The notes under the pieces were generated by a model. It was given only the letters and a program-made list of their open reading frames with translations. It did not search any database and was not told the origin of the DNA. Positions 45,218-64,000 of a stretch of 64,000 nt of DNA are shown here, piece after piece; the stretch's first letter is position 1; the number at the start of each line of letters is the position of its first letter. The translations under genes were made by a program, and so were the position numbers. This DNA is from Fusobacterium sp. JB019. Lineage in GTDB: Bacteria > Fusobacteriota > Fusobacteriia > Fusobacteriales > Fusobacteriaceae. The DNA lies in contig JAUTCN010000002.1 of the NCBI GenBank assembly GCA_030673965.1, positions 310,001 to 374,000 on the forward strand, given 5' to 3'.

Positions 45218-46609
45218 TTAATATTGAAGATTAAATTTTAAATGCTTATTAAAAGTCAAATCTCTATTTATTTTAAAATTTTGATCATTTACAAATTGTC
45301 TATATTCTACTGCAATTTCTGTTATTTCTTGCAATTCAGAATCTGTTAGTTCTCCATTAGGATATGCTAATTTTATTAATCCGCTAACTATTTTTTCAAT
45401 AGCTCTTTTATCTCTTATAGATGCTCCTTCAATATTAAGTCTATTCATAACAAATGGATAACTTTTTCTTCTAATTTTATGTAAAATTTCACTAAAATAA
45501 TCTGCTGCAAATCCATAATTTTTAGTAAATGCAAATTTAGGATCTTTAATACTATCTAATTCCCATCCAGGAACTATTCCAGCTAATCTATCTAAAAATG
45601 CTGTATGCGTATTACTTTCATGTAATAAATTTGATAAAAGATCTTGCTTATTGAATTCTCCGCTTGGAAGGTTTCCAACCATCATCATTCCACACTCACT
45701 ACTTTTTTCAACACTCCCTCTATCAAATTTTCCAGACTCTAAATATTGATAAAGTTTCCCATTTACTTCATCACCAAGACCTTTATTACTTATTTTATCT
45801 ATTTCATCAAAAAGAAGAACATCATATTGTACTAATAAACCATCTTGCCTTGTATTTAAATTATAAAACAGTTGTGGTACACTAACCTGGCTTCCTGAAA
45901 TAACTCTAGAGTAAGAAGAAATATTTTCATAAGCATAAGTTTTCCCTGTTCCTGGATGACCAAATTCCATCATAAATAAATTATTTTCAACCATTGGTAA
46001 AAGCCTTGATAAAAGTATAAATTTTTCTCTTCTACTATAGTTAGAACAATTCAAACCTATTGTACTTATCATTGCATTTATCCATTCGTCTGTAGAAAAA
46101 TTTGATCTTGCATCTACAAATTCATCTACATCTATATCTGGAAGTTGAAAAGGTTTAAATGCTTTTAAAATAACTTGTCCAGAATCATAATTATATAAAA
46201 CTTCTCCCATTCCCCATAATCCATCAATCATAAGTCTAGGATAATCTTTTAATAACTCAGAAGTAACTTCTGCATCATTTATTCCCATACTTGGGATTTC
46301 CATTTGAGTATTCTGTTTATTCTTTTTTAAATTAATTTTAACTTTAAATTTATCAATCAATTTAAAACTACTTTCATCTTGTAATCTAAATTTTGCTTTT
46401 TCCCTTTCTTTACTCTCTACTCTATGCTCTGCTATATATGATTGCATAGATTTTAATCCACTTTCTTCTATCTCATCTTCACAAAAAAATCCTAAAAGAT
46501 ATTCTGAAACATATCTTGGAAGACTTTGTACTTCATTATTTAATGCTTTTTGTTTATCAACAACAGCACTTCCAAAATTTTCTTTTAACTTGCTTTCCCA
46601 AAGCTCCAT
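45218..46609 (-). CDS. brxL: BrxL-like AAA+ protein lacking the Lon protease domain
   Basis: A 463-aa protein. The N-terminus (FGSAVVDKQKALNN, LPRYVSEYLLGFF) matches BrxL, and the AAA+ domain has Walker A GHPGTGKT (217-224) and Walker B VLLFDEIDKI (263-272). Type 1 BrxL is near 680 aa because of a C-terminal Lon-like serine-lysine protease domain; here the protein ends after the AAA+ lid and no protease motif is present. No Lon-like sequence was seen in the short gap before the terminator. It begins 9 bp after pglZ. In known BREX, BrxL binds DNA and is needed for phage exclusion. The short form may be normal for type 4. Confidence 0.85.
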   Translation of the reverse strand: MELWESKLKENFGSAVVDKQKALNNEVQSLPRYVSEYLLGFFCEDEIEESGLKSMQSYIAEHRVESKEREKAKFRLQDESSFKLIDKFKVKINLKKNKQNTQMEIPSMGINDAEVTSELLKDYPRLMIDGLWGMGEVLYNYDSGQVILKAFKPFQLPDIDVDEFVDARSNFSTDEWINAMISTIGLNCSNYSRREKFILLSRLLPMVENNLFMMEFGHPGTGKTYAYENISSYSRVISGSQVSVPQLFYNLNTRQDGLLVQYDVLLFDEIDKISNKGLGDEVNGKLYQYLESGKFDRGSVEKSSECGMMMVGNLPSGEFNKQDLLSNLLHESNTHTAFLDRLAGIVPGWELDSIKDPKFAFTKNYGFAADYFSEILHKIRRKSYPFVMNRLNIEGASIRDKRAIEKIVSGLIKLAYPNGELTDSELQEITEIAVEYRQFVNDQNFKINRDLTFNKHLKFNLQY

Positions 46610-46618
46610 ATAACCCTC

Positions 46619-48982
46619 CTACAATAAACTTCTGCTTTTTTTTAATTTTTTAGATATTTTAGATTTTCTAGATTCTAAAGATTCTATATCTATATTTAAT
46701 TCTGCTTTCTGGGTTTTACCATACACCTTCATTTCTATCACTACTTTTTCAGGAATTTTTCCTATTTGCTTTATAGTTAAAGGAATAACTATCTGTTTAT
46801 TTCCTTCAATATTATTAAAAACTTCACTTGCTCCATTATAAGCTAAAGATACTTCCAAGCTATCTATTTCATTTTCATTTATAAGAAGAAGTATTATTTC
46901 ATCTTTTTCATTAGCTGTAACTTTTAATTTTTTAGTTTCTAATTTTATTGGTTTATATTCTTTTATATTTTTGCTCAATACAGCAAAAGGAATCATTACT
47001 TCTTCCATTGCTATTCCACCGTGAGTACATTCTCCGCTTCTAATAGGAGCATATTTTCCTTTGTACATCAAATAACAATATACCTCTTTATTTCTAATAG
47101 TTTCTTTTAAGTAATAATTATTTAACTTATCTCTTGAAATAACATGATACAAATCACTTTTTTGTAAGCTTTCAATTAAAACATTATAAATTTTTTCATC
47201 AAAATATAATCCCGATATTCTTATATATCTTCCATGATTTTCTATCTCTAAATTTTTTTCTTTTATAAAATTTCTAAATTCAATATTTTTTGTATTTTCA
47301 CTATTTATAGCTACACATCCATGATCAGTACAAACTACAACATCAGTATCTTTCTCTTTTATATATTCTAACACTGGTTTCATTCTATGATGAAGTATAC
47401 TTTTTAAATATTCTATTGTTAGATCTTTAGACTTATGAATATTTTCGTCCATTTCTAAAATTTCATATATATTTATATCTGAGTTTTCATCTATATCTTC
47501 AAATTTTGAAATATAATTTACTTTATATTTCATAAAAAATTCTTTAATTTCATCTGCATAAGACATATTTTCATTTATATCATTATATTTTTTACCTGAA
47601 AATAATATTTTTTTACAATGATTAGTAACTGTTGGAATCATACTTAAAATTAAATCATCCTTTTGAACAAAATAATCTAATTTATTAAATTCTTCTTTGT
47701 AACTTGCCCATACATCATATCTTAAGCAATCTACAAAAACTATAAAAACTTTTTTACCTTTTAATAATATTTTCTTTATTTCTTCTAATTTATAACTCAA
47801 CCCTTCTTTAATTTCAGAGCTCATTAATTGATTATAATTGTTTAAAAAATAATTTTGAAATTTCTCATCGATATTTAACCATTTTTTCTGAATATTTATT
47901 CTAATATTATTTAATTCAATTTTATATTTTTTTTCACAATCTTTTATTATCTTTTCAGTTTTATCATCACTTAAATCATTATTTAAAATAATATATTCTT
48001 TTTTAAAGAATTTTTTCCAATTTTGTAAATCTTTAATATTTTCCATTTCAAAATTGATATCTATATTTTGAATGGCTTCTACTCTTTCTAATAGTCTTTT
48101 TATTAAAATTTCTTCTGGAAACTTTTCTAAAAACTTTTCATAACTTATTTTTTTATTTTCAATATCCAAGTTTTCATTAAAGTTTTCTAAAAATTTAGCT
48201 ATAAAAAATGTTTTCTCAAAATTTAAGTAGCCAGACACTCCATTTAAATACTCATTTTCATTATAATTTATAAATAAAGGTAATTTTTTATAGTTTTCTT
48301 CTAATTTTTTTTCAATTTTTTCAAAATTAATATCTTCTAATGCTTCCAAAAATGCATTATTTAATTCTTCATTTTTTTTATAAAATTTATAACTTTCTTC
48401 AACTTCATCCCAAATCCCAAATATTCTATAATTAATTTCAAAATATTTTGAAAAAATATAACCTTCTAATAATTTTTCTTTAAATATTGTTGGATGTTTT
48501 AAAAATAATTTTTGCATTTCTTCAGGATAATTTTTAAGATAAATATTTTTGAAATTTACTAATAATTCTGAATTAGAAAATGAAATATTTTCTAAAACAT
48601 TTAACAACTTAAATATATTTTTTTCTTCTTGAAAATGATATCTAATTAAATCTCTATCAAAATTTTTATTTCCTTGACTTAAATCATAAAATTTTTCAAA
48701 ATTAGTTATTCCTAAACTTTTCATTTCATCTATAGTAATTTCTAATTTTACCTTAGGAGATTTTTTTTCTACAACTACTCTAGTATCTTCTTCTAAATCA
48801 AGAAAAAAATTAAATAAGCTTTCCTTTTTTATCACTATTTCCATAGCTTCATCTCTATTTTTATATCTTTCATATAATTTTCTAGCTTCTAAGTAGGAAT
48901 AGAGATCTTTCACTTCTATCCCTATTCCCTTTACTTGATAATTAATTCCACTATCTTTTATTAAATGTATTATTGTCCTCAC
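46619..48982 (-). CDS. pglZ: PglZ alkaline phosphatase-superfamily protein
   Basis: A 787-aa protein and the signature component of BREX/Pgl systems. The C-terminal PglZ domain has VFIVFVDCLRYDVW (metal ligand D418), MIPTVTNHCKKILFSG with the presumed nucleophile threonine near 451, VVVCTDHGCVAI (D553, H554) and CTHGGIAMEEVMIPFAVL. The N-terminal 400 residues are helical and poorly conserved. The start is a GTG directly after the stop of the ATPase gene, with no gap, so translation is coupled. PglZ is thought to control the modification complex. Confidence 0.92.
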   Translation of the reverse strand: MRTIIHLIKDSGINYQVKGIGIEVKDLYSYLEARKLYERYKNRDEAMEIVIKKESLFNFFLDLEEDTRVVVEKKSPKVKLEITIDEMKSLGITNFEKFYDLSQGNKNFDRDLIRYHFQEEKNIFKLLNVLENISFSNSELLVNFKNIYLKNYPEEMQKLFLKHPTIFKEKLLEGYIFSKYFEINYRIFGIWDEVEESYKFYKKNEELNNAFLEALEDINFEKIEKKLEENYKKLPLFINYNENEYLNGVSGYLNFEKTFFIAKFLENFNENLDIENKKISYEKFLEKFPEEILIKRLLERVEAIQNIDINFEMENIKDLQNWKKFFKKEYIILNNDLSDDKTEKIIKDCEKKYKIELNNIRINIQKKWLNIDEKFQNYFLNNYNQLMSSEIKEGLSYKLEEIKKILLKGKKVFIVFVDCLRYDVWASYKEEFNKLDYFVQKDDLILSMIPTVTNHCKKILFSGKKYNDINENMSYADEIKEFFMKYKVNYISKFEDIDENSDINIYEILEMDENIHKSKDLTIEYLKSILHHRMKPVLEYIKEKDTDVVVCTDHGCVAINSENTKNIEFRNFIKEKNLEIENHGRYIRISGLYFDEKIYNVLIESLQKSDLYHVISRDKLNNYYLKETIRNKEVYCYLMYKGKYAPIRSGECTHGGIAMEEVMIPFAVLSKNIKEYKPIKLETKKLKVTANEKDEIILLLINENEIDSLEVSLAYNGASEVFNNIEGNKQIVIPLTIKQIGKIPEKVVIEMKVYGKTQKAELNIDIESLESRKSKISKKLKKSRSLL

Positions 48983-51900
48983 CTACTCACAAAATATTTT
49001 TATTCCTTCATAGCCTTCATTTTTATATCTTTCTAAAAGTTGGTATATTTTATCATTAAACTCATTTAATGTTATCTCTTTTTTTCCAAGAATCATTAAG
49101 TTTTCATTTAATTCTTTTCTCATTTTATCTATTTCAATACTTTTTCCAAATGATTCTTTTTTATCTTCCAAATAATTATTTAATGATTCTTTTATAGAAA
49201 CAATTTTCTCTTTTAAATTATCAACATGTTCATAATTTCCTGATTCTATCTGTCTCATATTTATCATTAAATCAAAGAAATCATCATTATTTTGAAAAGA
49301 AGTTTGGATATCTTTTAAAGAACTTTGATATCTTTGGAATATCCCACTAATATGAGCCTTTTTCTTGCTAAATTTTTCTTCTAACTCTTTTAATTCAGTG
49401 CTAGCTTTTCCCAAAGAATTTATTTTACACATACATCTCATTTCTCCATTTTCTTCTTTACAAGAACATTTTTCAAAACTATCTAATTCTTCTAAAAATG
49501 GTTTTATTGATGCTACATTTCCAAATTTAACATCCTCAAAGTACTTAATTGCCTCTATTTTACCTTTTTCTTCTCTTTCTAACTTTATTTTTAAACTTTC
49601 ATACTCTTCATAATAACTATCATGAATTTTTTTAAATTCTCTATAATAATTTTCCTTTAAACCTTCAGATTTAATTCCTAAGTCTTCTAAAAGCTCCAAA
49701 TTTAAATAATCATTTTTATAATTTTCAAAACTATCTTTTATATCTTTTAAAGTAGATTTAAAAGATTCATATCCTTCTAAATTTTCTATTTTATAATCTA
49801 AGTTACTTAAAATATCTTTCACAAAATATATTCTATTATCTTTTAATTTATTATATTTAAGAATTGTACTTTTTAATTCTTCTATATTTTCTTCATATGT
49901 TGTATTTCTAAATAAATAAGGTAATTCTTCTAGTTCCTTAAACTTTTGTTTATTATCACGTTGTTTTTGAATAGAATTTAACTTATTTGATAAAGTTTTT
50001 AACTTTCCTGTTTTAATCCCATAACTACTTAATTGAATTTCTTTTTTAGAAATTATTTTGTAAATGTCTACCATTTCTTTTGATAATGTTAATTCTACAT
50101 TAAAGTCATTCCTTGAATCTGCTTTTACCTTTTTAGCTTCACTTTTAATTCCATTTATTCTTCCTAATGCTTTCCAAACAGATACCACTTTTTCAGGAAC
50201 ATAAATTATTTCATTTTTTTTCATTTCATAATCTTGAGCTTTTGAACTTAATTTTTTTGTGTTTTCTCTTTCTAGTGGAAGTGGTCTTCCGGTAGCTTTA
50301 TTAACTATATAGGTTCTTCCTAGTTTATTTGAAATAAAGAAATAAAGATCTATTAAAGGTACATTCAAACCATAAGGTGATGATTCTAATATTTTATATT
50401 TTTCAGCAATACTAATCTCTTCTTCTTTTGATTCAACTATATTCATTATTTCTTTTGATAAAGAACTATTATTTTCATTAGGAACTTTAAACTCAACACT
50501 TTCCATATCTACTTTTTCTGTAACACTTATTAAATCTAAAGGTTTTAAAGTAGCATATACATTTTTAGCTTCTTCTGAAGTTCTATCTTTCTTTGAAATA
50601 TCTGCATTACCATCTAAGAATATTTTAATTAATCCATTCAACGGACTTCTTGTATTAAAGTTTTCAACTTTTATTTCATGAGGAAATTTACTATAGAAGT
50701 TATACAATAATTCTTTATATAATGCTATATCTTGCCTTAAATCATCTCTTATTTTTCCTTTAGAAAATATAAATGTAAAGTTTCTTAAATTTGAAAATTT
50801 TCTTAAATACTTATTTCTAATTTTATCTTCTAATTTTCTTCTTCTTTGAACAACTAATTTCTTTATATCTTCATTCTTAGCAATGTTTTCATTATTATTT
50901 TCTAAATTTAATAATGCACCATATTCAATTAATTCTTCTTTATTAAAAACAATTTCTTTCGGCATTGCTAAACAAACATTAGCTTCTAAATCATTCATTG
51001 CTATTTTGTAATCATCAATTATATTATTTTGATTATATTCTTCTTCAAAATTAGGAATTACAAAAAATATTTTTCCATCTACTTCCATTTCTTGTTTCGA
51101 TGATTCTACAATGGCTCTCTTACCCATTTTTCTTAAAGCACTCACTGTAAATATTTCTCCATTTAGTTTTCTATCCATAGGATATAATCCAATACTATAA
51201 TTTAAATTATAATGCTTCTTTATAAATATTCTATCTTCTGCTTTCTCTAATATTTTATCCCTTATAAAATTAGGATTTATTATTTCTTTTTCTTTATTTA
51301 ATAACATTTCTATATTTATTCCACTAGTATTCACAAACATTCTATACTTACCATTAATTTTTTGAATATTTATATGATTTACTGAAGCTACTGGACCTAA
51401 TTTTCTCTCAACTTCTTCTTCATTTGATTTTTGATATAAAGTTGCAAAATCACTTGCAGTAAACTCAGTTTTATTATTACTTTTTACTAAAGAGTTTGAA
51501 TAAGCTAATACTAAAGCCTTAGCATAATTTATTAAGTCCTCATCTTCTCTTACTTCATTATATATTTGGTTAAATTCTTTCACTAAATTTTTGTTTCCTT
51601 GTTCTATTTCTTTTTCAAAATAATCATAAAGATCACTTAATGTTATTAAATTTATTTTCCCATTTTTCTCAACAGGTTCATTATAGAATTTTCTTCTAAT
51701 AACTTCTTCTAAAAAAGTAAATGTTGTTCTTGTTTTTTGAGCATATTGGTTACTTATTGGCTCTAAGAAAGCTGCTGTTGCAGGATGCAAAGGATAAAAA
51801 TCCATTAATTTTCTATTGAATTTATCTTCCGCTTCATGCACAAAATTACTATATTTATAAAATAAATCTTCTATTTCTAGTTTATCTTTTATTTCAATAG

Positions 51901-52933
51901 TACTTTTTAATAACTCTTCTCCTTGATTAAAACTAAGAACATGCCCTCCAAATCTTCCAAAAACTTTATCTAACATATCTTTTTTACTGCTATCATATTT
52001 CCCTACCATTTGAACTATGTCTGTATGTGTAGAGGCAATAAAGGAAACATCAATATTAGTAGATTTAGATGTTAACTGTGCTATATTTTGAATTTGACCT
52101 AAGTCTTTATTTAATCTATTATTTTCCATTGATGCACTTATATAAGCTGAAAATTCATCAAAAATAATAATTAATTCATCATAACCTTGTTCCTTTAAAA
52201 CATCATTAGCATCTTTTAAAAAATCTTCTAGCTTATCTAGTTCTATCTTTGGTAAAAAGCCAAGTACTTCTTTAGCAATTTCTTCAAATTGACTTATTCC
52301 CTCTCTCTTATGATGAAATAAATTGGCTTCTACATCTCTAATTGTATAATCTTTCATTAATAAAAAATCTTCTATCTTATTTCTATTAGCTCTAACTACT
52401 CTATCAAAATTTTCCATTGTTTCTTTATATACACTAGACAAAGAAATATCTTCAAATTTTTCTTCCAATGCTCTTGTTACTTCTGATTGTATTACATCTT
52501 TAAAATCTTTTTCATTTTCATTTTCTCCGTTTATACGAACAAGAAAATATTTCTTATCTTTTCTTATTAAATTTAGTTGATATTGTAATTCTGGAAAATT
52601 ATTAAATCTAGAAATTAATTCATCTGCTAAACGACTATTTTTCATTTCTAAAACAACACTTAACATCAATAAAAAATAAGATTTCCCAGTACCATATTGT
52701 CCTGATAATATATGTGCTCTTTTCATAGATGGATTTATATCTTGCAGTTTTGCTCTTCTAGTACTACTTCTTACCATAGTAATACTTTCTAAAATATCCA
52801 CAAAAATTTCTGCTAAATCCTCTGTCATTATATAATTTGCTAACAATCTTTCTTGCTCATTTATATTTCCTGCCCATTTTAAATTTATTACAGGATCAAA
52901 ACTTTTTAAATTTATTAATTCTTTAATCAGCAT
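48983..52933 (-). CDS. brxC: BrxC/PglY-like giant ATPase
   Basis: A 1316-aa P-loop protein. The AAA-like ATPase core is at the N-terminus: Walker A in ILSGQYGTGKSYFLL (about 78-85) and Walker B in LIIIFDEFSAYI (about 255-263), followed by a helical part and, past residue 900, coiled coils. A cysteine cluster (CSCKEENGEMRCMCKIN, near 1160) could bind zinc. BrxC/PglY proteins of 1100-1300 aa carry the same core and are essential for BREX. It overlaps the small P-loop gene by 11 bp and is joined to pglZ. Confidence 0.88.
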   Translation of the reverse strand: MLIKELINLKSFDPVINLKWAGNINEQERLLANYIMTEDLAEIFVDILESITMVRSSTRRAKLQDINPSMKRAHILSGQYGTGKSYFLLMLSVVLEMKNSRLADELISRFNNFPELQYQLNLIRKDKKYFLVRINGENENEKDFKDVIQSEVTRALEEKFEDISLSSVYKETMENFDRVVRANRNKIEDFLLMKDYTIRDVEANLFHHKREGISQFEEIAKEVLGFLPKIELDKLEDFLKDANDVLKEQGYDELIIIFDEFSAYISASMENNRLNKDLGQIQNIAQLTSKSTNIDVSFIASTHTDIVQMVGKYDSSKKDMLDKVFGRFGGHVLSFNQGEELLKSTIEIKDKLEIEDLFYKYSNFVHEAEDKFNRKLMDFYPLHPATAAFLEPISNQYAQKTRTTFTFLEEVIRRKFYNEPVEKNGKINLITLSDLYDYFEKEIEQGNKNLVKEFNQIYNEVREDEDLINYAKALVLAYSNSLVKSNNKTEFTASDFATLYQKSNEEEVERKLGPVASVNHINIQKINGKYRMFVNTSGINIEMLLNKEKEIINPNFIRDKILEKAEDRIFIKKHYNLNYSIGLYPMDRKLNGEIFTVSALRKMGKRAIVESSKQEMEVDGKIFFVIPNFEEEYNQNNIIDDYKIAMNDLEANVCLAMPKEIVFNKEELIEYGALLNLENNNENIAKNEDIKKLVVQRRRKLEDKIRNKYLRKFSNLRNFTFIFSKGKIRDDLRQDIALYKELLYNFYSKFPHEIKVENFNTRSPLNGLIKIFLDGNADISKKDRTSEEAKNVYATLKPLDLISVTEKVDMESVEFKVPNENNSSLSKEIMNIVESKEEEISIAEKYKILESSPYGLNVPLIDLYFFISNKLGRTYIVNKATGRPLPLERENTKKLSSKAQDYEMKKNEIIYVPEKVVSVWKALGRINGIKSEAKKVKADSRNDFNVELTLSKEMVDIYKIISKKEIQLSSYGIKTGKLKTLSNKLNSIQKQRDNKQKFKELEELPYLFRNTTYEENIEELKSTILKYNKLKDNRIYFVKDILSNLDYKIENLEGYESFKSTLKDIKDSFENYKNDYLNLELLEDLGIKSEGLKENYYREFKKIHDSYYEEYESLKIKLEREEKGKIEAIKYFEDVKFGNVASIKPFLEELDSFEKCSCKEENGEMRCMCKINSLGKASTELKELEEKFSKKKAHISGIFQRYQSSLKDIQTSFQNNDDFFDLMINMRQIESGNYEHVDNLKEKIVSIKESLNNYLEDKKESFGKSIEIDKMRKELNENLMILGKKEITLNEFNDKIYQLLERYKNEGYEGIKIFCE

Positions 52934-53387
52934 CCTTTTTCCTCCAAATAATAATATTTTCTTCTGGTAATTTACTTTTTTCTAATATATTTTCAAGCTT
53001 CATTTTTTTTATATTTGAAATAATAAAAATTACTTTACCAGTATAAGCTTGCATTATCATACTATCAAAAAATTTCTTTAATCCATTTTCATTTTTTTCT
53101 AAATTATAAAGTATATTTTGAACAAATTCTAAATTATCAATCACTACTATTCCCCTATTGTAATCTATCAGTCGCTCTATATATTTAAAGAAAATTCCTA
53201 TCTCAAATAAAGTTAAGCTAAGCATTTCTTTATCAAAAAATTTCTTTGCTTCCTCTAAAAAATTGATATACTTTATATTTTCTATTTTTAATAATTCTTT
53301 AGTTTTCCCGCTTCCTACTTCTCCTAAAAGAATATAAGATTTTATTCTTGAATTATTATTTCTTATAGCTTCTATAATATTTTTCAT
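52923..53387 (-). CDS. Small P-loop ATPase, BrxF-like
   Basis: A 154-aa protein with Walker A in YILLGEVGSGKTKELLK and Walker B in GIVVIDNLEF, then a C-terminal NIIIWRKKDAD. Small ATPases of this size accompany BrxC in some BREX types (BrxF in type 3, BrxD elsewhere). The frame extends upstream to 53417, but GGAGG sits before the ATG at 53387, which is preferred. It overlaps the giant ATPase gene start. Confidence 0.7.
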   Translation of the reverse strand: MKNIIEAIRNNNSRIKSYILLGEVGSGKTKELLKIENIKYINFLEEAKKFFDKEMLSLTLFEIGIFFKYIERLIDYNRGIVVIDNLEFVQNILYNLEKNENGLKKFFDSMIMQAYTGKVIFIISNIKKMKLENILEKSKLPEENIIIWRKKDAD

Positions 53388-53403
53388 AAAAGTACCTCCA
53401 TTT

Positions 53404-54216: not shown

Positions 54217-54236
54217 ACATCTCTCCCTTGAAAATT

Positions 54237-54935: not shown

Positions 54936-57900
54936 TCAGCTCCTAACAATATCTCTGTTAATATTTTTTTCTTTTCCTCTAAAGGAATTGATTGTCCCAT
55001 ATTCTTAACTGCTGATTCTAACTTCTTTTTTAAAAGCTTTCCATGCATAGTTTCTTTTAGTCTCATGTCCACACTTATATTTTTATTGTCATATTTTATA
55101 TTAATTGTCCCTCTTGTGATTTCTTTATGACTTTCTCCTTCTTTTTTAGATTCTAAAATAAACTTTTCTTTAAATTCTTCTACATCTTTTTTGTTTCTCC
55201 AATTTTCATAAGAAAATCCCTTTATTCTTTCTGTTATTTTTATTAATATTTCTTCATCTCTATAATCTTCTAAAGTTAAAATATATTTTTCTATTTCATT
55301 TAAATTTTCTTTAGTCTTTAACATTTTTATTAACTCTTTAAAACTTTTATTTATACCAAGAGAACATATAATAAAATTAGTAAGTTCATTTCTAAAATTT
55401 ACTTTGCACTTTTCTAAATTTTCTAAATCTGTTTTCATTTTTTTAATTAATTCTAATAAATTATATTCTTTATATACTTTAGGAATCGCTCTTAATGTAA
55501 ATTCACGTCCATTATTAACACTAAAAATTCCTGAAAATAATTTATTCATCATTTTGTTTTCTCTTAAAAAGATTCCATTCATATATCTTGGCAAAGATAT
55601 TATATAATTTTTCATTCCTGCTAAAACTCTATTAGCAATTGTATTTTTATTTTTAGGAATATATAATTCAAATATTTCACTTAATTTTTTGACATATTCT
55701 ATTTCTTCTTTTCCCATAGAATAATAACTTATTTCATAACGTTTTGGATTTTTTTCTATATCATCTAATATTTTTAAATCTAGTTCAATTTCTCCTTGAG
55801 TTGCCTTTAAATTTAATCCTATAAACTCACTATTTTCAATAAATAATAATCCTAAAATAAATGTAAATATTCCTTTTCTTATACCATATTCTCCCAAGTT
55901 TGATGTATACTTTCTATATATATCCCCTAAATTTATTTTATTTAGCTTTATGTCTTCTAAAACCTCTTTATAAACTGAATAATATATACTTCCATTTAAT
56001 TTTATTTGACCTAACTTATATATATTTTGATTTTTAAGTAAGATTCTAGCCACACTTCCCTCTGCTGTAGTCTTATTAAAATAACTTTCATCAGTTAATA
56101 TTTCTTTATTCTTTAATTTTGTTAAAATATCATATCTTGCTTTTTTCATAGGAAAACTCAGATTATTTTTATTAATTAGTTCATAATTAACTCCTATATA
56201 TTTAGTGTATTTATTCTTTAAATATTTAGTTGTAAAATCCATTAAATTTAACTGATTGTACTTTAAGTCTTTATCTATAATTCCATTTAAAAAATAATCA
56301 TTAAGTTCATCAGTTAGTTTCTCTAATACTTCTTGTTTGAAAATTTCTAACTCACTTTTTAAAACTCCTTCTGTAGAATATTTTTCATCTTTAGCAAATA
56401 ATATTTTTATTGTTTCTAATTCTTTTAAAAGATCCAATATTTCTAAATTTTTTCCATATTCATTGCTTATTAAAACTATCTCTTTTTTTAATAACCTATT
56501 TTTTATCTCTTGATAGTTAACATTTCCTTCTATATTTGTTAAATATATTATCTTTCCATCTTCTGTTTCATTTTTCATTATCTCATCTATTTTACTTAAA
56601 TAGCTTACATCTAAATAATATCTTCCCATATACCTAGTTATATTATTCTTATCGTTATATTCCAACGGATAATAAGCTTCTCTATTTAAATTTTCTTCCA
56701 AAGTTTCCATATAGTCAAAATTACCTAATTTATTTTCTATATAATCTTTTATCTCTTTATCTACATTTACATCTATATCCTCTACTAATTTATAGTGATT
56801 ATAATGTTTTCTATAACCTAATAAATTTTTTGACTTTAATTTATTTACAATCTTATCTATATTTTCTATGTTTAAAATTGCCTTCATTACTTCAGGAGTA
56901 GGTTCTAATTCAGAAAATTTATTATATATATATATCATGGCTAAAGATTTTATAAATTTTCTTTCTAATTTTTCTTCTGGCTTTAAACTATTTAATAAAT
57001 TTTTCGAATTTATATATACTTTATATTCACTGCTTTCATTTGATAAAAATTTAAAATTATCTTTAAAATATTCATATAGACTATCTAACCCTATAAACTT
57101 ATCCGTTGTATTTAAGATAGTATTTTTTAATCCTTTTTCTTCATTTCCACAAATATAAGCAAATAATGATCTTTCATTTTGAGCTAATTTTTGAGATAAA
57201 TCCGGAAGCATATTTGCTCCTATGTAATCTAGTGGATAATATCTTTTTACGCATTCTTTTGCCTCTCCAGAAAGCATTCCTGTTTCTTTTAATAAAATTT
57301 CTTTTCTTGAAAATTCTTCAAAATTATTTTTTCTATATTCTTCATAATTTTTTTTCAAAAGAATATCTTCTAAAATATCCATTACGTTTATTTTTTCATA
57401 AGAAAGATGTTCTTTTAAAAACCTTCCACTTACTTTTTCCCATTCATCTAAATTTTCTTTACTTTTTAATTTGTTAGTATATTGAAAAACATCTTTATGA
57501 GTTATCATAAATAAGTTAGAACTATTGTCTTCATTACAATATTCTGCCATATCTTGAATTTCTTTTACATCAATATTGTTTATTCCTGTCTCTAAATATC
57601 TTCCAAATTCATCAAAAATATAAATAACACCATCATATCCTACTTCAATAGCTTGCTTTTCTACATCACAAACTAATTCCTTCATGCTAGAAGTCTTTTC
57701 TAAAGATATAAATTTTTCTCCTGCAAAAATTTCTGAATATATTTCAGAAAAAATATTTATAGCTTTTTCATTCTTTTCTTTTAAAAATCTAAAAAATTGA
57801 TCTTCTAATTCTTTTTCTTTTAATTTACTAATAAATAAATTATAAGTTTCATTATGATTTAGTTTCCATTTACTTATTTTTCCTTCTATGATTTCATAAT

Positions 57901-58336
57901 TAGTAGATAAATTTAATTTAATATTTCTATTTTTAACAGCTCTATATACACCTAATAAAATTGATTGCCAATAATTATCCCCATTATCATCCCCAAAAAT
58001 TATTAAATATTTTTTATTTCTATATTTTTTTAAAATATTCTCTATATTATATTTTTTATTGCTTTTCATTAAAAAAGAATTAAAATTATTTATATTAAAT
58101 CTTTCATCTAAAATATTTAACAAAATAGATATTAAGTATGACTTTCCTGTTCCATAAGCTCCTGATAATAATACAGAACCTTCTTTCTTTTTATCAATCA
58201 TCATTAAAAATTTATCTAATAATTTTAAAGTTTTATAAGATGGATAATAATTATTAATTTTATTCTTATCTTGATAATCAGCTTCTATATTTATGGAATA
58301 TTTATTTGTTTCTAATACATTAATTATATTTTTCAT
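54932..58336 (-). CDS. Second BrxC-like giant ATPase
   Basis: A 1134-aa P-loop protein with the same plan as the 1316-aa ATPase: Walker A in VLLSGAYGTGKSYLISILL (about 59-66) and Walker B in GVIYIFDEFGRYLE (about 222-232), then an ITHKD sensor-like motif. The SG-YGTGKSY and IFDEF motifs are shared by the two proteins, indicating paralogy. The rest is divergent, so duplication is old or the copies were recruited separately. It follows the DUF4007 gene by 3 bp and overlaps the next gene. Confidence 0.8.
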   Translation of the reverse strand: MKNIINVLETNKYSINIEADYQDKNKINNYYPSYKTLKLLDKFLMMIDKKKEGSVLLSGAYGTGKSYLISILLNILDERFNINNFNSFLMKSNKKYNIENILKKYRNKKYLIIFGDDNGDNYWQSILLGVYRAVKNRNIKLNLSTNYEIIEGKISKWKLNHNETYNLFISKLKEKELEDQFFRFLKEKNEKAINIFSEIYSEIFAGEKFISLEKTSSMKELVCDVEKQAIEVGYDGVIYIFDEFGRYLETGINNIDVKEIQDMAEYCNEDNSSNLFMITHKDVFQYTNKLKSKENLDEWEKVSGRFLKEHLSYEKINVMDILEDILLKKNYEEYRKNNFEEFSRKEILLKETGMLSGEAKECVKRYYPLDYIGANMLPDLSQKLAQNERSLFAYICGNEEKGLKNTILNTTDKFIGLDSLYEYFKDNFKFLSNESSEYKVYINSKNLLNSLKPEEKLERKFIKSLAMIYIYNKFSELEPTPEVMKAILNIENIDKIVNKLKSKNLLGYRKHYNHYKLVEDIDVNVDKEIKDYIENKLGNFDYMETLEENLNREAYYPLEYNDKNNITRYMGRYYLDVSYLSKIDEIMKNETEDGKIIYLTNIEGNVNYQEIKNRLLKKEIVLISNEYGKNLEILDLLKELETIKILFAKDEKYSTEGVLKSELEIFKQEVLEKLTDELNDYFLNGIIDKDLKYNQLNLMDFTTKYLKNKYTKYIGVNYELINKNNLSFPMKKARYDILTKLKNKEILTDESYFNKTTAEGSVARILLKNQNIYKLGQIKLNGSIYYSVYKEVLEDIKLNKINLGDIYRKYTSNLGEYGIRKGIFTFILGLLFIENSEFIGLNLKATQGEIELDLKILDDIEKNPKRYEISYYSMGKEEIEYVKKLSEIFELYIPKNKNTIANRVLAGMKNYIISLPRYMNGIFLRENKMMNKLFSGIFSVNNGREFTLRAIPKVYKEYNLLELIKKMKTDLENLEKCKVNFRNELTNFIICSLGINKSFKELIKMLKTKENLNEIEKYILTLEDYRDEEILIKITERIKGFSYENWRNKKDVEEFKEKFILESKKEGESHKEITRGTINIKYDNKNISVDMRLKETMHGKLLKKKLESAVKNMGQSIPLEEKKKILTEILLGAE

Positions 58337-58339
58337 TTA

Positions 58340-59206
58340 TTACTCACTTTCTAATATTCTAGTTATTATTTCTTTTTCTGATATTTCTTTTTTTAAAATT
58401 ATGTTTGCTAATCCTCCACCACGATCAACTGATATATATTCTTTATTTTCTAGCTTTACTAAAAGTTTTTCATATTCATAATGTCTCATTCTTATAATCC
58501 CATTAAATTTTTCATAAGCATCTTTAACTGCTATTTGTCTATTTTTATTTTTTAGAAAATTTCTATTTAATAAAAAATATACTATATACTCTGATATTTC
58601 TTTAGCCATTATATTTCTAAATCTATATTCCCCAGATATATTTTTTTCTAAATAATTTAATCTAATAAAAGGTGAATACATATTATTTTCTGGATCTAAT
58701 TTTTCTTCTTTTTCTTGGTAATACATTTTTATAAAAACATTAATGCTGTCTTTTATACTTTTTTCTGAAAACTTTAATTCATGCTCTTTTAGAAAAATTT
58801 CTACTTGATTTTTTATCTTAGCATAATCAAAATTATTAAGTTTTTTAGATTGTAATATCAGTTTCCATAATAGAAGTACCTCATCTTCATTATCTCTCTC
58901 CATAATATAACTATGTAATAACCATAGAGTATTATTATTTTGAAAGTAGGGATCTTTTTCTAAAATAAGATCTATCCATCTTTTTGTTATATATGTTTTC
59001 TTTTCTTTTTTTATTAAGTCCAGTGATGTTAACCAAAATTTTAGTGATAACACCATTACACTTCCGATTCCAAGCTCATCTATTGCTTTTATATTACTCT
59101 TACTAAAAGCATTATCTTTATTATTATTTTTTATATACTTTATTCCTTTTTGTATCCAGCCTTCTCTCACATAAAAAGAGCTATGACCTACTAATAAATA
59201 ATTCAT
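58340..59206 (-). CDS. DUF4007 family protein
   Basis: A 288-aa protein of the DUF4007 family, often found beside PAPS-reductase-like genes. It opens GHSSFYVREGWIQKG, then has IDELGIGSVMVLSLKFWLTS and LEKDPYFQNNNTLWLLHSYI. A C-terminal winged-helix-like region includes RMRHYEYEKLLVKLENK. It begins 9 bp after brxP. In the operon it probably supplies the DNA-binding or target-selecting part of the sulfur-modifying complex (inference). Confidence 0.85.
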   Translation of the reverse strand: MNYLLVGHSSFYVREGWIQKGIKYIKNNNKDNAFSKSNIKAIDELGIGSVMVLSLKFWLTSLDLIKKEKKTYITKRWIDLILEKDPYFQNNNTLWLLHSYIMERDNEDEVLLLWKLILQSKKLNNFDYAKIKNQVEIFLKEHELKFSEKSIKDSINVFIKMYYQEKEEKLDPENNMYSPFIRLNYLEKNISGEYRFRNIMAKEISEYIVYFLLNRNFLKNKNRQIAVKDAYEKFNGIIRMRHYEYEKLLVKLENKEYISVDRGGGLANIILKKEISEKEIITRILESE

Positions 59207-59215
59207 CTTATTCTC

Positions 59216-60928
59216 CTATTTTTTTATTTTTAAAGCTGACGAAATTAAACATCCTGTTTGAAATCTTGATACACAATTAAGACAATGTACGCACTTATTT
59301 TCATCAATTTTATAACTATTATCCCCAACTGATATTGCCCCAAATTTACATGTTGAATTACAAGCTTGACAATATACACAAGAATTATATTTATTTAATT
59401 GTCTTTTTATTTTTCCATATAAATATCTATCTTTTGTATCTACTAAAGTTATTTTAATTTCAGGATTTTGTTCCCTATAAAAAATTTTAAATAATACTTT
59501 TCCTTCTCTTGAAAGAATATATATTTCTTGTTTATTTCCTTTGTTTGTAAAAATAAGTTTTCCAAATGGTTTTAATAATTCAAAAAGCTCTTCTTGAACA
59601 TTTCTATTTAAAACAAATCTATAACTATTTTTTTCATTAATACATTCTTTACTCTCTAATACAATATTAGAACTTTTTTCTAATCCTGCTCCTCCCTGCC
59701 TTGCCTTCCATTTTCCTTCATTAACATAATTTTTTATCTCTTCAGATAGTTCATTTTTTGATAATTTTTTACCAATACCTTCGTTATAATCCAATATTAT
59801 TTTTTTAGCAAACTTATATAAAAAATTTTCCCAATCATTATAATCCACTTTTAAACTCGGATTAATTTCTTTTAAAACATATAATTTGCCTAATAATTGA
59901 GACCAATCAGAATTATTTGGACAAACCCAACAGCCTACTCTTGAAAAGCCATATCTATAAGAATCATTAAATTTTATCTTTTCTGTTAGCAAATATAGCC
60001 AAATATCAATATCTAACCAATCTATTACTGGCGATGCTACCATTTCACCATGAATTTTAGGAGTTAGATTAATTTTTTCATATTTACTTCTTGCAATCGA
60101 CTCTTTTCTTCTAACTCCATAAAAAGTTAAAAATTTTTCGTCAAAATTTGACAAAGTTGTTCCCATCGGTCCTGTTTTAAATATTGAACAACACCAAGAT
60201 TTAACTCTACTCGGAGGTCCTATTTCTTCACACATTTCAAAAAAATTATTCTCTTCATTTTTTTCTTCAAAAAATGGAGTCATAGGATTGTCAATTTTAA
60301 ACTTTTCAACATATTCATAGGTTTTGGGTAATTCTAGAGTTGTATCCCCAAATATATGCAATATGCTTTGATCATTTAATGCTTTTCTTACTAAATGAGA
60401 TACAGCAGTAGAATCTTTCCCACCACTAAAAGAAACCATTTTGATCCTATCTTTATGCTTTTGTGATACTTCATTTATAAATGGATAAGCACCTATAAAA
60501 TGTCCTTCATTATCTCTCTCTTCTGATTCTAATAAATAATACAAATGTTGATAATTTAATTTTATAAATTTATTAATTATTATTTTTTCTTTTTCAATCA
60601 TTTTATTAGTTTTTTCAAAAGAAAATATTTTAATTCTAAGCTCTTCGATACTTTTAATTTCCTTCATTGCTTTTATATAACTTTTTTTTAACCAGCCTCC
60701 ATCTATAATATATTTACCTAATTTAGTACACCATACTGAGCTTTCATAAATACTTTCCTCTAAAGAAAATAATTCTTTTATTAAATGTTTTTCTTCTAAA
60801 AATACAGGCCTAAGATCAGTTGTTAAATATTCTAAATTATCTGTTTTTATTTTAATATTATCTGTTCTTTCGTCTATAATTATTGGAACTTTTTCTTTAC
60901 TGTTCCAATATACTTTAAATTCTCTCAT
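59216..60928 (-). CDS. brxP: BrxP-like PAPS reductase/DndC-type enzyme fused to a dicluster ferredoxin
   Basis: A 570-aa protein. After an N-terminal domain of about 140 aa comes a PP-loop ATPase domain with SFSGGKDST (166-174), GVRRKES (271-277) and the Fe-S cysteines C246, C247, C333 and C336 in the CC...CxxC layout of sulfonucleotide reductases and DndC. The last 60 residues are a ferredoxin with two four-cysteine motifs, CVYCQACNSTC and CVHCLNCVSRFQTGC. DndC-like enzymes activate the DNA backbone with ATP for sulfur insertion. It is the defining gene of type 4 BREX, and the fused ferredoxin suggests it carries its own electron supply. Confidence 0.88.
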   Translation of the reverse strand: MREFKVYWNSKEKVPIIIDERTDNIKIKTDNLEYLTTDLRPVFLEEKHLIKELFSLEESIYESSVWCTKLGKYIIDGGWLKKSYIKAMKEIKSIEELRIKIFSFEKTNKMIEKEKIIINKFIKLNYQHLYYLLESEERDNEGHFIGAYPFINEVSQKHKDRIKMVSFSGGKDSTAVSHLVRKALNDQSILHIFGDTTLELPKTYEYVEKFKIDNPMTPFFEEKNEENNFFEMCEEIGPPSRVKSWCCSIFKTGPMGTTLSNFDEKFLTFYGVRRKESIARSKYEKINLTPKIHGEMVASPVIDWLDIDIWLYLLTEKIKFNDSYRYGFSRVGCWVCPNNSDWSQLLGKLYVLKEINPSLKVDYNDWENFLYKFAKKIILDYNEGIGKKLSKNELSEEIKNYVNEGKWKARQGGAGLEKSSNIVLESKECINEKNSYRFVLNRNVQEELFELLKPFGKLIFTNKGNKQEIYILSREGKVLFKIFYREQNPEIKITLVDTKDRYLYGKIKRQLNKYNSCVYCQACNSTCKFGAISVGDNSYKIDENKCVHCLNCVSRFQTGCLISSALKIKK

Positions 60929-60946
60929 TTTATCCCTCTATACTTT

Positions 60947-63859
60947 CTAATATACTATTATTATTCCTCTTTCTTGCAATACTTCTTCAACATCATAATA
61001 ATCTTCAACATCTATTTCTTCTTCAAAATCAATAGAATCAATCCATTTACTTTTTACTTTACCTGCTCTTAATCCTTCAGCTAACAAGGTATCAAATGTC
61101 CAAATTTTTTCTACATTTTCAATTGGTGTATTTTGAATTTTTTCTTCTTCTGTATTTTCTGAAATTTCCATATTAATCTCATCAGTATTTTCAATTTTTG
61201 GTAATTTTTCATAATTTTCTTCAGATTTTTTTGATAAATTTTCATTCTTATAAAAAATTTCATTTTCAAATTCATCCCATTTATATAATCTAATTATTTC
61301 ATTATTCAAATAAACCAAATAAAAATACATTCCCTCTTTTATTCCTACATTTGAAAAAACTTCTGATATTCCTTTTATTATAGCTCCCTCTTCTCTATCT
61401 GATATGTTTAACTTATATTCTAAATCTTTATATCTTAATAATATTTGTGAAAATAATTTATATACAAAATATTCTCCTAAATTTAACCCTCCATTTATTA
61501 TTATATTTTCTTTATTTACGCAATGTAAACTTACTAATTTTCCATTCTTTTTAAACTTTCCTTTATTACAAGTTCCTACTTTATTTTCCATACTAGCTTC
61601 TATTCTATTTTTAGAAATATAGTATCTTTTACTTAACTCAAAATTATCTGCCCATTCTTTTAAAGCTAACTTCCCACGGCTATATGAAAAAACTTCTTTT
61701 GGCATAGAAGCTAATGCTTTTAGTGTAGTGTTATTCGCTCTTGTTTTTTCACTTATATTCTCTACTATTTCTTGTATAGTAGCTGGTGCTCTTTTTTCTC
61801 TTAAATAAGCAACAGTTAAATCAGCTGTATAAATATGTCTTTGACCTCCCCATTTCGTTAATCTATAAATACCTGTAAAAACTCTTGTAAAAATTTTATC
61901 TTCTAATTTTATTATTATATTTCTAAAACTATTATTTTCATTATAATACTCATTATATAAATCTGCAGCTTCTGCTAGTTTTAATTCCCTTTGTTCTACT
62001 TCAAAAACCATTTGTAATTTATCTATCATATTTATATTTTTATTTGAGTACATAACTAAATTTTTACATTTGCATATTTTTTTACTATTTTTTATAATAT
62101 TACTAATAAAATCTTCTGATTTTATTCCTATTTTTTCAAATTCTTGTTTAAATTTATCAAAAGTTATTACTTTTTCTTCTATTCCTTTTAAATTTTCATA
62201 TATATCTTTTTCTTTTATTAAGCTATAATAATTTTCGAAATAAATATTAACTACTTCTTCTTTAAAAAGTTCATATATTCTAATAATCTCTATTATTTTT
62301 AATTTATCAAAAGCTTTATATTTTCTTATTTCTTTTTCTAATTCATTTTTTGTTAAAACTTTATTTTCATTAAAAATATTATCTAAAATATCAAGATAAC
62401 TATTTATACTTTTTTTCTTATGTAATTCTAATTTCCCTTTTACTTTAATTTCTATTTGGCGAACTCTTTCTCTTGTTACCCCAACATGCTTTGCTGCTTC
62501 TTCTAAAGTCATCCTTTTAAGCAATCTAAGTTTAAATACTTTCTTTTGAGGATCAGTAAAAGTTTTCATTATATCTATAATTTCTAAAACTAAACTATTT
62601 TTAAATTCAGAATATTTTAAACTTTTTCTATTAACATAACGATAAAAATCTACACATTTAAACTTTAAAGAATTATTTAAAATTTCTTTTATTACTATTT
62701 TAGATATTTTTTCCTTATATAACCATAATTTTTCTTCTATTTCTTCTACACTTAAAGGTTCATTTCTTAATAATACCAACAAAATTTTCTCTACCTGATT
62801 AATGTTAAATGCTACAGGAGCTTCTTCTTCTATTATTTTCATTGCTTCTATTATTTTTGCCAATTCATCTTCTAAAGTTGTTTCTTCTATTTTTTTATAA
62901 ATTTTATTATCTATCACTTTATATTTTTTTCTTATACTTTGAAGATATTCTTCTAAAGTACATAATATTTCTATAAAATTTTTATCTGCTCTAAAAAATT
63001 TATTGTTTTCTCTTAAATATCTATCTAATTCTTTTCTATTTATAGACTTTGATTTTAATTTATCTACTAAAAGATTTTCTATTACTTTATAAGGCAATTT
63101 TTTTATATCTCTATCTATTATTAAAGCTCCTAAAAGAGGTTTGAAAAAAATATTTTTATTACTAGCAATGTAAAATAACTTATTATTTTTGACTAATTTT
63201 TTTGATAAAATATAAGGCATACACTTTAATATTTCTTCTACTTCTTTTCCAGCCTTTGATCTATTTTCCGCTATATGATTAAATCTTAATGAAACTCCTG
63301 TTTTCAATATAAAGTCTATTACATATTTTTCTATATCTTCTACTTCATAATTTATTTTATTTGTTCCTAAATTTTCATAAGCAGTAAATATTTTTGTTTC
63401 TTCTTCTTTTTCTATTTTTTGTTTTATTTCTTGCCTTGTTTCTTTTTCTATTTTTTTATTTTCATGTCTATTTTTATCCCTATTATATATTTCTTTGTAA
63501 ATATTAAATATTTTTTCTTTCTTTTCTTGATCCGATTTATATTTATCAAATAAATTTTTTATTTCTAAATCTGATAATCTTATAAAATAATGACGATTTA
63601 TTCTACTTATAATGTTATCCTTATCTTTTATACTTTTATAAAAATTCATAAAATGAGTTTTACAAACAAAAGAATTTTTTTGAATCTCAAAAATTTCTTT
63701 TTTTTCTAATAACCATTCTTTAACTTTTTCTTTAGTATATTCAATACAAAAACTAGCATGAATTCTTTGTTGAACTTCATCAACAGTTATTAACTTATTA
63801 TTTCCTATTACATCATTTTTTATTATCGTTTCTAAATACTCCCTACATTCCTGTTTCAT
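60947..63859 (-). CDS. 970-aa multi-helix-turn-helix protein with a sigma-70 region 4 domain
   Basis: The protein has several predicted DNA-binding modules. The central one, about residues 433-482, reads FTDPQKKVFKLRL then MTLEEAAKHVGVTRERVRQIE, which is the region 4.2 helix-turn-helix of primary sigma factors. Winged-helix segments resembling HARE-type domains lie near 20-65 (VDEVQQRIHASFCIEYTKEK) and 690-760 (TADLTVAYLREKRAPATIQE). There is no sigma region 2, so it is not a working sigma factor. The C-terminal 120 aa are acidic. It may recognise target sites, regulate the operon, or sense phage transcription. It precedes brxP by 18 bp. Confidence 0.75.
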   Translation of the reverse strand: MKQECREYLETIIKNDVIGNNKLITVDEVQQRIHASFCIEYTKEKVKEWLLEKKEIFEIQKNSFVCKTHFMNFYKSIKDKDNIISRINRHYFIRLSDLEIKNLFDKYKSDQEKKEKIFNIYKEIYNRDKNRHENKKIEKETRQEIKQKIEKEEETKIFTAYENLGTNKINYEVEDIEKYVIDFILKTGVSLRFNHIAENRSKAGKEVEEILKCMPYILSKKLVKNNKLFYIASNKNIFFKPLLGALIIDRDIKKLPYKVIENLLVDKLKSKSINRKELDRYLRENNKFFRADKNFIEILCTLEEYLQSIRKKYKVIDNKIYKKIEETTLEDELAKIIEAMKIIEEEAPVAFNINQVEKILLVLLRNEPLSVEEIEEKLWLYKEKISKIVIKEILNNSLKFKCVDFYRYVNRKSLKYSEFKNSLVLEIIDIMKTFTDPQKKVFKLRLLKRMTLEEAAKHVGVTRERVRQIEIKVKGKLELHKKKSINSYLDILDNIFNENKVLTKNELEKEIRKYKAFDKLKIIEIIRIYELFKEEVVNIYFENYYSLIKEKDIYENLKGIEEKVITFDKFKQEFEKIGIKSEDFISNIIKNSKKICKCKNLVMYSNKNINMIDKLQMVFEVEQRELKLAEAADLYNEYYNENNSFRNIIIKLEDKIFTRVFTGIYRLTKWGGQRHIYTADLTVAYLREKRAPATIQEIVENISEKTRANNTTLKALASMPKEVFSYSRGKLALKEWADNFELSKRYYISKNRIEASMENKVGTCNKGKFKKNGKLVSLHCVNKENIIINGGLNLGEYFVYKLFSQILLRYKDLEYKLNISDREEGAIIKGISEVFSNVGIKEGMYFYLVYLNNEIIRLYKWDEFENEIFYKNENLSKKSEENYEKLPKIENTDEINMEISENTEEEKIQNTPIENVEKIWTFDTLLAEGLRAGKVKSKWIDSIDFEEEIDVEDYYDVEEVLQERGIIIVY

Positions 63860-63893
63860 TTATTTCCCCTTAACTTATTATATTTTTAACTTT

Positions 63894-64000
63894 TTATAAA
63901 ATTTCTTCTAATACTTCGATTAATTTTTTAAAATCTTTTTCTCTCGTAAAGTATGAAATTGAAAATCTAATAGTTCCATTTTCATCAGTTTTCATATGTT
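63894..64000 (-). CDS. Cysteine desulfurase (IscS/NifS/DndA type), C-terminal fragment
   Basis: Only the last 34 codons are in the window; the gene continues beyond the right edge. The visible end is HMKTDENGTIRFSISYFTRE followed by KDFKKLIEVLEEIL and a stop. The G-x-(I/V)-R-(F/I)-S and Y/F-T-x-E-x-D pattern is the usual C-terminal signature of class V aminotransferase-fold cysteine desulfurases. It lies 34 bp upstream of the 970-aa protein gene in the same orientation. It would deliver sulfur from cysteine to BrxP. The catalytic cysteine and PLP lysine are outside the view. Confidence 0.7.
   Translation of the reverse strand, partial: HMKTDENGTIRFSISYFTREKDFKKLIEVLEEIL

What the first reader, a model, noticed from the sequence alone, without database searches (positions are those of the whole stretch)
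45218..64000. Type 4 BREX-like defence operon with a sulfur-transfer modification module
Eleven co-oriented genes encode a probable cysteine desulfurase, a DndC/PAPS-reductase-type enzyme, DUF4007, BrxC-like ATPases, PglZ and BrxL, but no PglX methyltransferase. The brxP-brxC-pglZ-brxL core is the established definition of type 4 BREX. I infer that the self mark is a phosphorothioate in the DNA backbone rather than a methyl group. From memory, unverified, recent work links type 4 BREX to such modification. The operon here holds more components than the four-gene core.
Basis: partly seen in the sequence, partly recalled or inferred. Interest (0 to 1): 0.88.

Follow-up and report, generated by a model that had tools for sequence, protein, structure and literature searches.

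The report
BREX core wired to sulfur-marking module
A Fusobacteriota genome carries one 12-gene block that joins a complete DNA-sulfur-marking kit (the Ssp type) to a complete BREX-type phage-restriction core, each with its own DNA-binding protein and ATPase; the same pairing was assembled independently in Chloroflexota, so the restriction core looks like a part that can be plugged onto different self-marks.

Summary
Observation confirmed. Eleven tightly packed co-oriented genes (minus strand, down to 45218) run from a cysteine desulfurase, mostly outside the window, to BrxL; a small HTH gene lies upstream. The reading "type 4 BREX" is only partly right. Ten canonical type 4 loci fetched for comparison have one fused BrxP and one ATPase. 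This locus has two complete sets. Set 1 (desulfurase, Fe-S PAPS reductase, DUF4007-A, SspC) is an Ssp phosphorothioation cassette: its reductase, SspC and DUF4007-A nest inside the Ssp clades, outside the type 4 clades. Set 2 (DUF4007-B, small P-loop NTPase, BrxC/DUF6079, PglZ, BrxL) is a BREX core without a methyltransferase. Set 2 recurs in one more Fusobacteriota genome and seven Chloroflexota genomes, always in genomes with SspC. In one Bacteroidota and one Desulfobacterota genome a related core carries an Eco57I-type methyltransferase instead. A single common origin of the two-set SspCs is rejected (p-AU 1e-53), so the modules were joined more than once. Best reading: Ssp writes the sulfur mark, and the core, with PglZ as nuclease, restricts unmarked DNA. 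The mark and the polarity are inferred, not shown. New variant of a known kind.

The parts
63894..64000 (-). C-terminal end of a cysteine desulfurase (DndA/IscS-like, 375 aa; whole gene is L003:3895-5022, i.e. to window-equivalent 65021). Sulfur donor, set 1.
   Evidence: Tail read; whole gene; Pfam Aminotran_5 1.4e-58; PLP-lysine HKT and catalytic-cysteine motif GMHC present.
60947..63859 (-). 970-aa DNA-binding protein with an embedded sigma-70 region 4 and no detected region 2; probable regulator or adaptor. Kept in G043 (1070 aa, 32%).
   Evidence: Sigma70_r4 6e-9, MzaA-type match; G043 homologue. An analogue with RNAP alpha-CTD + sigma r4 + HARE-HTH sits in front of BrxP in L124.
59216..60928 (-). 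PAPS-reductase-type sulfurtransferase with ferredoxin-like C-terminus ('BrxP', here an Fe-S SspD). Writer, set 1.
   Evidence: PAPS_reduct 5.9e-31, PADLOC BrxP 4.5e-83, SGGKDS loop, invariant cysteines; tree places it in the Ssp clade.
58340..59206 (-). DUF4007-A = SspB-type DNA-binding protein, set 1
   Evidence: DUF4007 9.5e-52, SspB 5.4e-35, solved SspB 6juf 1e-4; Ssp-specific clade 98/98.
54932..58336 (-). SspC-type ATPase (1134 aa), set 1
   Evidence: PADLOC SspC 2.7e-66; Walker A GAYGTGKS; SspC clade 97-98.
54237..54935 (-). 232-aa protein; matches the N-terminal half of the 457-aa DUF4007-B of G043, so probably a split-off domain of DUF4007-B
   Evidence: 26% over 180 aa, E 2.6e-6; no Pfam hit.
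53404..54216 (-). DUF4007-B, DNA-binding protein of set 2 (the core)
   Evidence: DUF4007 5.7e-13; profile match to DUF4007-A 99.9%; outside the SspB clade.
52923..53387 (-). Small P-loop NTPase (154 aa from the ATG with a good ribosome site), set 2; occupies the brxB position
   Evidence: Walker A GEVGSGKT; family alignment A8; AF2 pLDDT 82, Foldseek to AAA+ cores 8.7e-5. No sequence match to BrxB.
48983..52933 (-). BrxC/DUF6079-type ATPase (1316 aa), set 2
   Evidence: DUF6079 1.9e-9, BrxC_BrxD 4.3e-6; GQYGTGKS and IIFDE motifs; G043 51%.
46619..48982 (-). PglZ, probable metal-dependent nuclease of the core
   Evidence: PglZ 2.3e-10; PorX structure 7pv7 6.7e-7; D418, T451, D553, H554, H654 present.
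45218..46609 (-). BrxL, AAA+ protein, short form without the C-terminal Lon-like domain; last gene of the operon
   Evidence: TIGR02688 3.9e-126 over 2-447 of 449; Walker motifs GHPGTGKT and LLFDE.

Best explanation
The operon is a composite phage-defence system of two modules. Module 1 (desulfurase, Fe-S SspD/'BrxP', DUF4007-A = SspB, SspC) takes sulfur from cysteine and places phosphorothioates at a short DNA sequence. Module 2 (DUF4007-B, small P-loop NTPase, BrxC/DUF6079, PglZ, BrxL) is a BREX core in which DUF4007-B and BrxC survey DNA, BrxL loads on or moves along unmarked foreign DNA, and PglZ cuts or nicks it; marked host DNA is spared. Each module has its own ancient DNA-binder/ATPase pair, so marking and restriction can evolve and be swapped separately. 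Shown: gene content, order, homology, intact catalytic motifs, module-specific ancestry of set 1, repeated assembly, co-occurrence of the core with SspC. Inferred: that the mark is phosphorothioate, that unmarked DNA is the target, and that PglZ is the nuclease.
For: Tight operon. Same block in G043, with two of the genes fused and one extra gene. Reductase in the Ssp clade, sister to same-phylum Ssp loci (100); SspC one clade, 97-98; SspB-type DUF4007 one clade 98/98 excluding DUF4007-B. Chloroflexota repeats with different writers: Fe-S reductase (L122/L078), short SspD (L125/L150, L126, L127). Core and cassette unlinked in G178, where SspBCD stands with no core genes next to it (L129, L167). 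All 7 Chloroflexota genomes with the core have SspC, which about 25 of 301 sampled genomes have. Related core with an Eco57I methyltransferase instead: L141, L147. PglZ keeps residues matching by motif those tested in type 1 BREX, T538 and H741. Ssp writes phosphorothioate and SspFGH attacks unmarked DNA (PMC8092258).
Against: No experiment. Window BrxC, BrxL and DUF4007-B are deeply diverged from the Chloroflexota cores, and one common core clade is not shown (not rejected either: BrxL p-AU 0.166, BrxC 0.45, DUF4007-B 0.271), so 'the same core' rests on gene order and families more than on trees. SspE-type systems use phosphorothioate as an activating signal, so polarity could be the reverse. 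The 970-aa protein has no assigned role in the model.
Confidence: 0.62

Rival explanations
1. It is an ordinary type 4 BREX system with duplicated genes: the second ATPase and second DUF4007 are local duplicates with no separate role.
For: All four named type 4 components are present by family. BrxL and BrxC of the window may be grouped with canonical type 4 without being rejected (p-AU 0.467; support 29).
Against: The two DUF4007s and the two ATPases are old: the Ssp copies form clades (98) that exclude the core copies across phyla. The reductase is not in the type 4 clade. Ten canonical type 4 loci have one ATPase.
Confidence: 0.13
2. SspE-like polarity: the core senses phosphorothioate and is switched on by it, so it is inactive rather than toxic without the mark.
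For: SspE, a partner of Ssp cassettes, works this way (PMC8092258). In the same phylum this cassette lineage pairs with SspE-like GmrSD_N proteins.
Against: Related cores pair with methyltransferases, and BREX type 1 marks self by methylation; a shared core is simpler if the mark blocks it.
Confidence: 0.2
3. Two independent defence systems that merely sit side by side in a defence island and do not cooperate.
For: The modules are separable: convergent operons in L122/L078, different contigs in G178. The site next to rlmD is a variable spot that holds another Ssp system in G033.
Against: In the window they form one operon with overlapping or near-overlapping genes, order kept in G043. All core-bearing Chloroflexota genomes have SspC. 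Set 2 has no writer of its own.
Confidence: 0.05

Closest known systems
Type 4 BREX (brxP-brxC-pglZ-brxL)
   Same: PAPS reductase, BrxC-type ATPase, PglZ, short BrxL, desulfurase; sulfur chemistry in place of PglX
   Different: Canonical type 4 has a fused 759-816-aa BrxP and one ATPase (L123, L140, L142-L146, L148, L149, L153). Here reductase and DUF4007 are separate and Ssp-type, there is a second DUF4007 and ATPase, and a separate small NTPase.
SspABCD with SspE or SspFGH
   Same: Set 1 is this cassette, with the desulfurase in the SspA role; the Fe-S form of SspD is already reported in some Ssp systems (PMC12839542)
   Different: The effector is a BREX core instead of SspE (GmrSD-like) or SspFGH (FtsK-type). 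Proteins of both those families sit next to close relatives of this cassette in the same phylum (L020; L018).
BREX-related capture (BRC) system (PMC12839542)
   Same: PglZ + DUF6079 + active STAND NTPase + DUF4007
   Different: BRC is defined by a HerA/FtsK translocase, and its listed parts include neither BrxL nor an Ssp cassette; here BrxL is present and HerA absent.
Type 1 BREX (brxA-brxB-brxC-pglX-pglZ-brxL)
   Same: Same order of roles, with DUF4007-B and the small NTPase at the A and B positions
   Different: No PglX. No sequence homology of DUF4007-B to BrxA or of the NTPase to BrxB (hhalign probability 0.2-0.3%); positional resemblance only. BrxL lacks the Lon-like part (463 against 707 aa).

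Membership tests
Type 4 BREX | brxP, brxC, pglZ and brxL in one operon and no PglX | tested here: met
   no methyltransferase in the operon
Type 4 BREX | BrxP of the type 4 lineage, fused to DUF4007 (the common form) | tested here: not met
   570-aa unfused protein in the Ssp clade; PADLOC match stops at 514/779
Type 4 BREX | A single BrxC/SspC-type ATPase | tested here: not met
   Two ATPases (1134 and 1316 aa); ten canonical loci have one
Type 4 BREX | BrxC and BrxL of the type 4 clade | tested here: inconclusive
   Canonical copies form clades (100), but grouping the window with them is not rejected (p-AU 0.467; support 29)
Ssp phosphorothioation module | SspB (DUF4007), SspC, SspD plus a desulfurase, in the Ssp clades | tested here: met
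Ssp phosphorothioation module | Phosphorothioate in host DNA at a short motif | not testable with these tools
   Needs LC-MS/MS or iodine cleavage
BREX (general) | PglZ and BrxC with intact catalytic motifs | tested here: met
BREX (general) | Blocks phage DNA replication without blocking adsorption | not testable with these tools
   Needs phage assays
BRC system | HerA/FtsK translocase in the locus | tested here: not met
   No such domain among the window operon proteins
Type 1 BREX | PglX methyltransferase and BrxA/BrxB families | tested here: not met

The most novel reading that the evidence does not exclude
The DUF4007-B/NTPase/BrxC/PglZ/BrxL set is a portable restriction core that does not read the chemistry of the mark. 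Depending on the lineage it is served by a sulfur writer (SspBCD, with either an Fe-S or a short SspD) or by an Eco57I-type methyltransferase, and self/non-self information reaches it through its own DUF4007 and ATPase. It would be one answer to which partners serve the large majority of sspBCD loci (83.9% in PMC8092258) that have neither SspE nor SspFGH.
Probability: 0.35. Interest if true: 0.8.

Novelty: new variant of a known kind. Interest (0 to 1): 0.62.

Why it matters
PMC8092258 found that most sspBCD loci had neither known restriction partner and suggested undiscovered ones. This locus and its Chloroflexota counterparts point to a BREX core as one of them, including a case (G178) where the core is unlinked to the cassette. 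It also has one DNA-binder/ATPase pair for marking and one for restriction, where canonical type 4 has a single ATPase. That makes the question of which BREX parts write and which restrict open to clean gene-deletion tests, and offers related cores with sulfur and methyl writers to ask whether BREX reads the mark at all.

Tried and rejected
A PADLOC BrxP hit as proof of type 4: rejected, because Ssp loci score the same. Homology of DUF4007-B to BrxA and of the small NTPase to BrxB: no profile signal. First AF2 model of the NTPase from 3 sequences was poor (pLDDT 63, no Foldseek match below 0.001); redone with 10 sequences (pLDDT 82, AAA+ core). Plasmid search with BrxC gave only weak ATPase matches. 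A common clade for all cores could be neither shown nor rejected. Iterated HMM hits for the 232-aa gene in L061/L067/L108 were judged to be profile drift and not used. One row labelled SspE in the BrxP tree (L065) is in fact a second, type 4-like BrxP of that contig. The label SspE in that tree was given by neighbourhood size class, checked by Pfam only for L038 and L020. The BREX type 4 phosphorothioate preprint (10.1101/2024.06.03.597175) is not held, so I cannot exclude that it mentions such loci.
Full report
What is there. The minus strand of 45218-63859 holds ten complete ORFs and the tail of an eleventh; the genome completes the eleventh as a 375-aa cysteine desulfurase, followed upstream by a 126-aa HTH gene and then an RlmD-like methyltransferase gene (the name rlmD is my reading of the sequence). 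Gaps from the 970-aa gene to BrxL are -11 to +20 bp; a terminator-like hairpin lies between the HTH gene and the desulfurase. In order of transcription: HTH, desulfurase, 970-aa sigma-r4 protein, Fe-S PAPS reductase, DUF4007-A, SspC, 232-aa, DUF4007-B, small NTPase, BrxC/DUF6079, PglZ, BrxL. The operon genes are 20-28% G+C against 32% for the next gene downstream. The genome is Fusobacteriota by its PNPase (72% to Fusobacterium vincentii, at most about 53% among the other top hits).

Two modules, not one. The PADLOC BrxP hit (4.5e-83) looks decisive but is not: Ssp loci with a GmrSD_N (SspE-like) effector score the same, and only canonical type 4 proteins match the whole model. In trees, the reductase sits in the Ssp clade beside three Ssp loci of the same phylum (support 100), apart from the type 4 BrxP clade (100). 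SspC copies form one clade (97-98) that excludes all core ATPases and all type 4 BrxC. SspB-type DUF4007 forms one clade (98/98) that excludes the core DUF4007s and the type 4 fusions. So the two DUF4007s and two ATPases of the operon are old, module-specific families, not local duplicates.

Canonical type 4 for comparison. Ten loci (L123, L140, L142-L146, L148, L149, L153), reached from Selenomonadales, Clostridia, Desulfobacterota, Bacteroidota and Chloroflexota samples, have BrxP of 759-816 aa, one ATPase (split into two frames in L153), PglZ and BrxL, often with a desulfurase, and no second ATPase or small NTPase. L142 has a 243-aa frame with a weak DUF4007 match after BrxP.

Recurrence. 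A mixed SspC/BrxC profile, or the window BrxC, was run on samples of six groups. Two ATPases in one locus were found in 2 of 98 Fusobacteriota (window and G043) and 5 of 301 Chloroflexota (L122/L078, L125/L150, L126, L127, and L128, whose core is broken), and in 0 of 391 genomes of the class of G401 (Clostridia), 346 Bacteroidota, 297 Desulfobacterota and 374 Spirochaetota (group names follow the titles of the loci used as centres). Two more Chloroflexota genomes hold the core and SspC apart: G395 on short contigs, and G178, where an SspBCD set lies on another contig than the core (L129, L167). All 7 Chloroflexota genomes with the core have SspC; about 25 of 301 have it (a Fisher test gave 1e-8, but five of the seven are linked, so this is not an independent count). 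Only two candidates per genome were scored, so further copies would be missed. The writer differs: Fe-S reductase in the window, G043 and L078; short SspD in L125-L128 and L167.

Independent assembly. Holding the SspCs of two-set loci in one clade is rejected (p-AU 1e-53): each nests with stand-alone Ssp of its own phylum. In Fusobacteriota the same cassette lineage is found with the BREX core (window, G043), with a GmrSD_N protein (G011) and next to an FtsK-type protein as in SspFGH (G002).

A methyl-writer version. L141 (Desulfobacterota sample) is DUF4007, small NTPase, Eco57I-type methyltransferase (1.5e-19), Schlafen-type protein, BrxC, PglZ, BrxL. L147 (Bacteroidota sample) is Eco57I-type methyltransferase (5.5e-21), DUF4007, NTPase, BrxC, PglZ, BrxL. 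Neither genome showed a second ATPase of the SspC kind (in G1231 only two of four candidates were scored). Their BrxL has 658-676 aa, against 462-498 in the sulfur-linked loci and 707-709 in two type 1 loci of the window's phylum.

Mechanism. Shown: families, motifs, ancestry, recurrence. PglZ keeps residues that correspond by motif (my assignment) to T538 and H741 of E. fergusonii PglZ, which matter for its metal-dependent activity (PMC12205998), and matches PorX. The small NTPase is an AAA+/STAND-like P-loop protein (pLDDT 82; Foldseek 8.7e-5), with degenerate members in L127 and L141. Inferred: set 1 writes phosphorothioate as Ssp does (PMC8092258), and set 2 restricts unmarked DNA. The reverse polarity (SspE-like) is a live rival.

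Setting. In G033 of the same genus the site next to rlmD holds a different Ssp locus; in G031 it holds other genes. It is a variable defence site, in line with horizontal gain.

Comparison with the literature. PMC12839542 describes type 4 with one BrxC, reports the desulfurase and a small HTH-like protein as frequent partners, and describes a BRC system with PglZ, DUF6079, STAND NTPase and DUF4007 together with HerA. I found no held paper describing SspBCD joined to PglZ/BrxL. The one directly relevant preprint could not be read. Verdict: real, intact, recurrent; a new variant that bridges Ssp and BREX.

Noticed in passing
window 30619-64000 and on to rlmD (L003:5896): Variable site: the same-genus genome G033 has a distant Ssp locus with its own desulfurase here (L029/L030), and G031 has other genes. 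Looks like a defence hotspot.
   Followed up: partly
L141 1995-17592; L147 2-13069: BREX cores with DUF4007 and a small NTPase carrying an Eco57I-type methyltransferase (L141 also a Schlafen AlbA_2 protein); I know of no named BREX type with this set.
   Followed up: partly
L128/L154 (G224:C2): A two-set locus in decay: core BrxC, PglZ and BrxL are broken into pieces with other ORFs between, while DUF4007-A, SspC and SspD stay intact. Suggests the core can be lost before the writer.
   Followed up: partly
BrxL, all loci compared: Every sulfur-linked BrxL compared is 462-498 aa, without the Lon-like part; the methyl-linked ones are 658-709 aa. Small sample.
   Followed up: partly
window 60947-63859; L016:4467-7679; L124:2608-4962: Large DNA-binding proteins with a sigma-70 region 4 (in L124 also RNAP alpha-CTD domains and a HARE-HTH match) sit directly before the sulfurtransferase; role unknown.
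   Followed up: partly
G363:C1 (L132 and L153): One Chloroflexota genome holds both a stand-alone Ssp locus and a canonical type 4 locus, in which BrxC is split into two frames.
   Followed up: no
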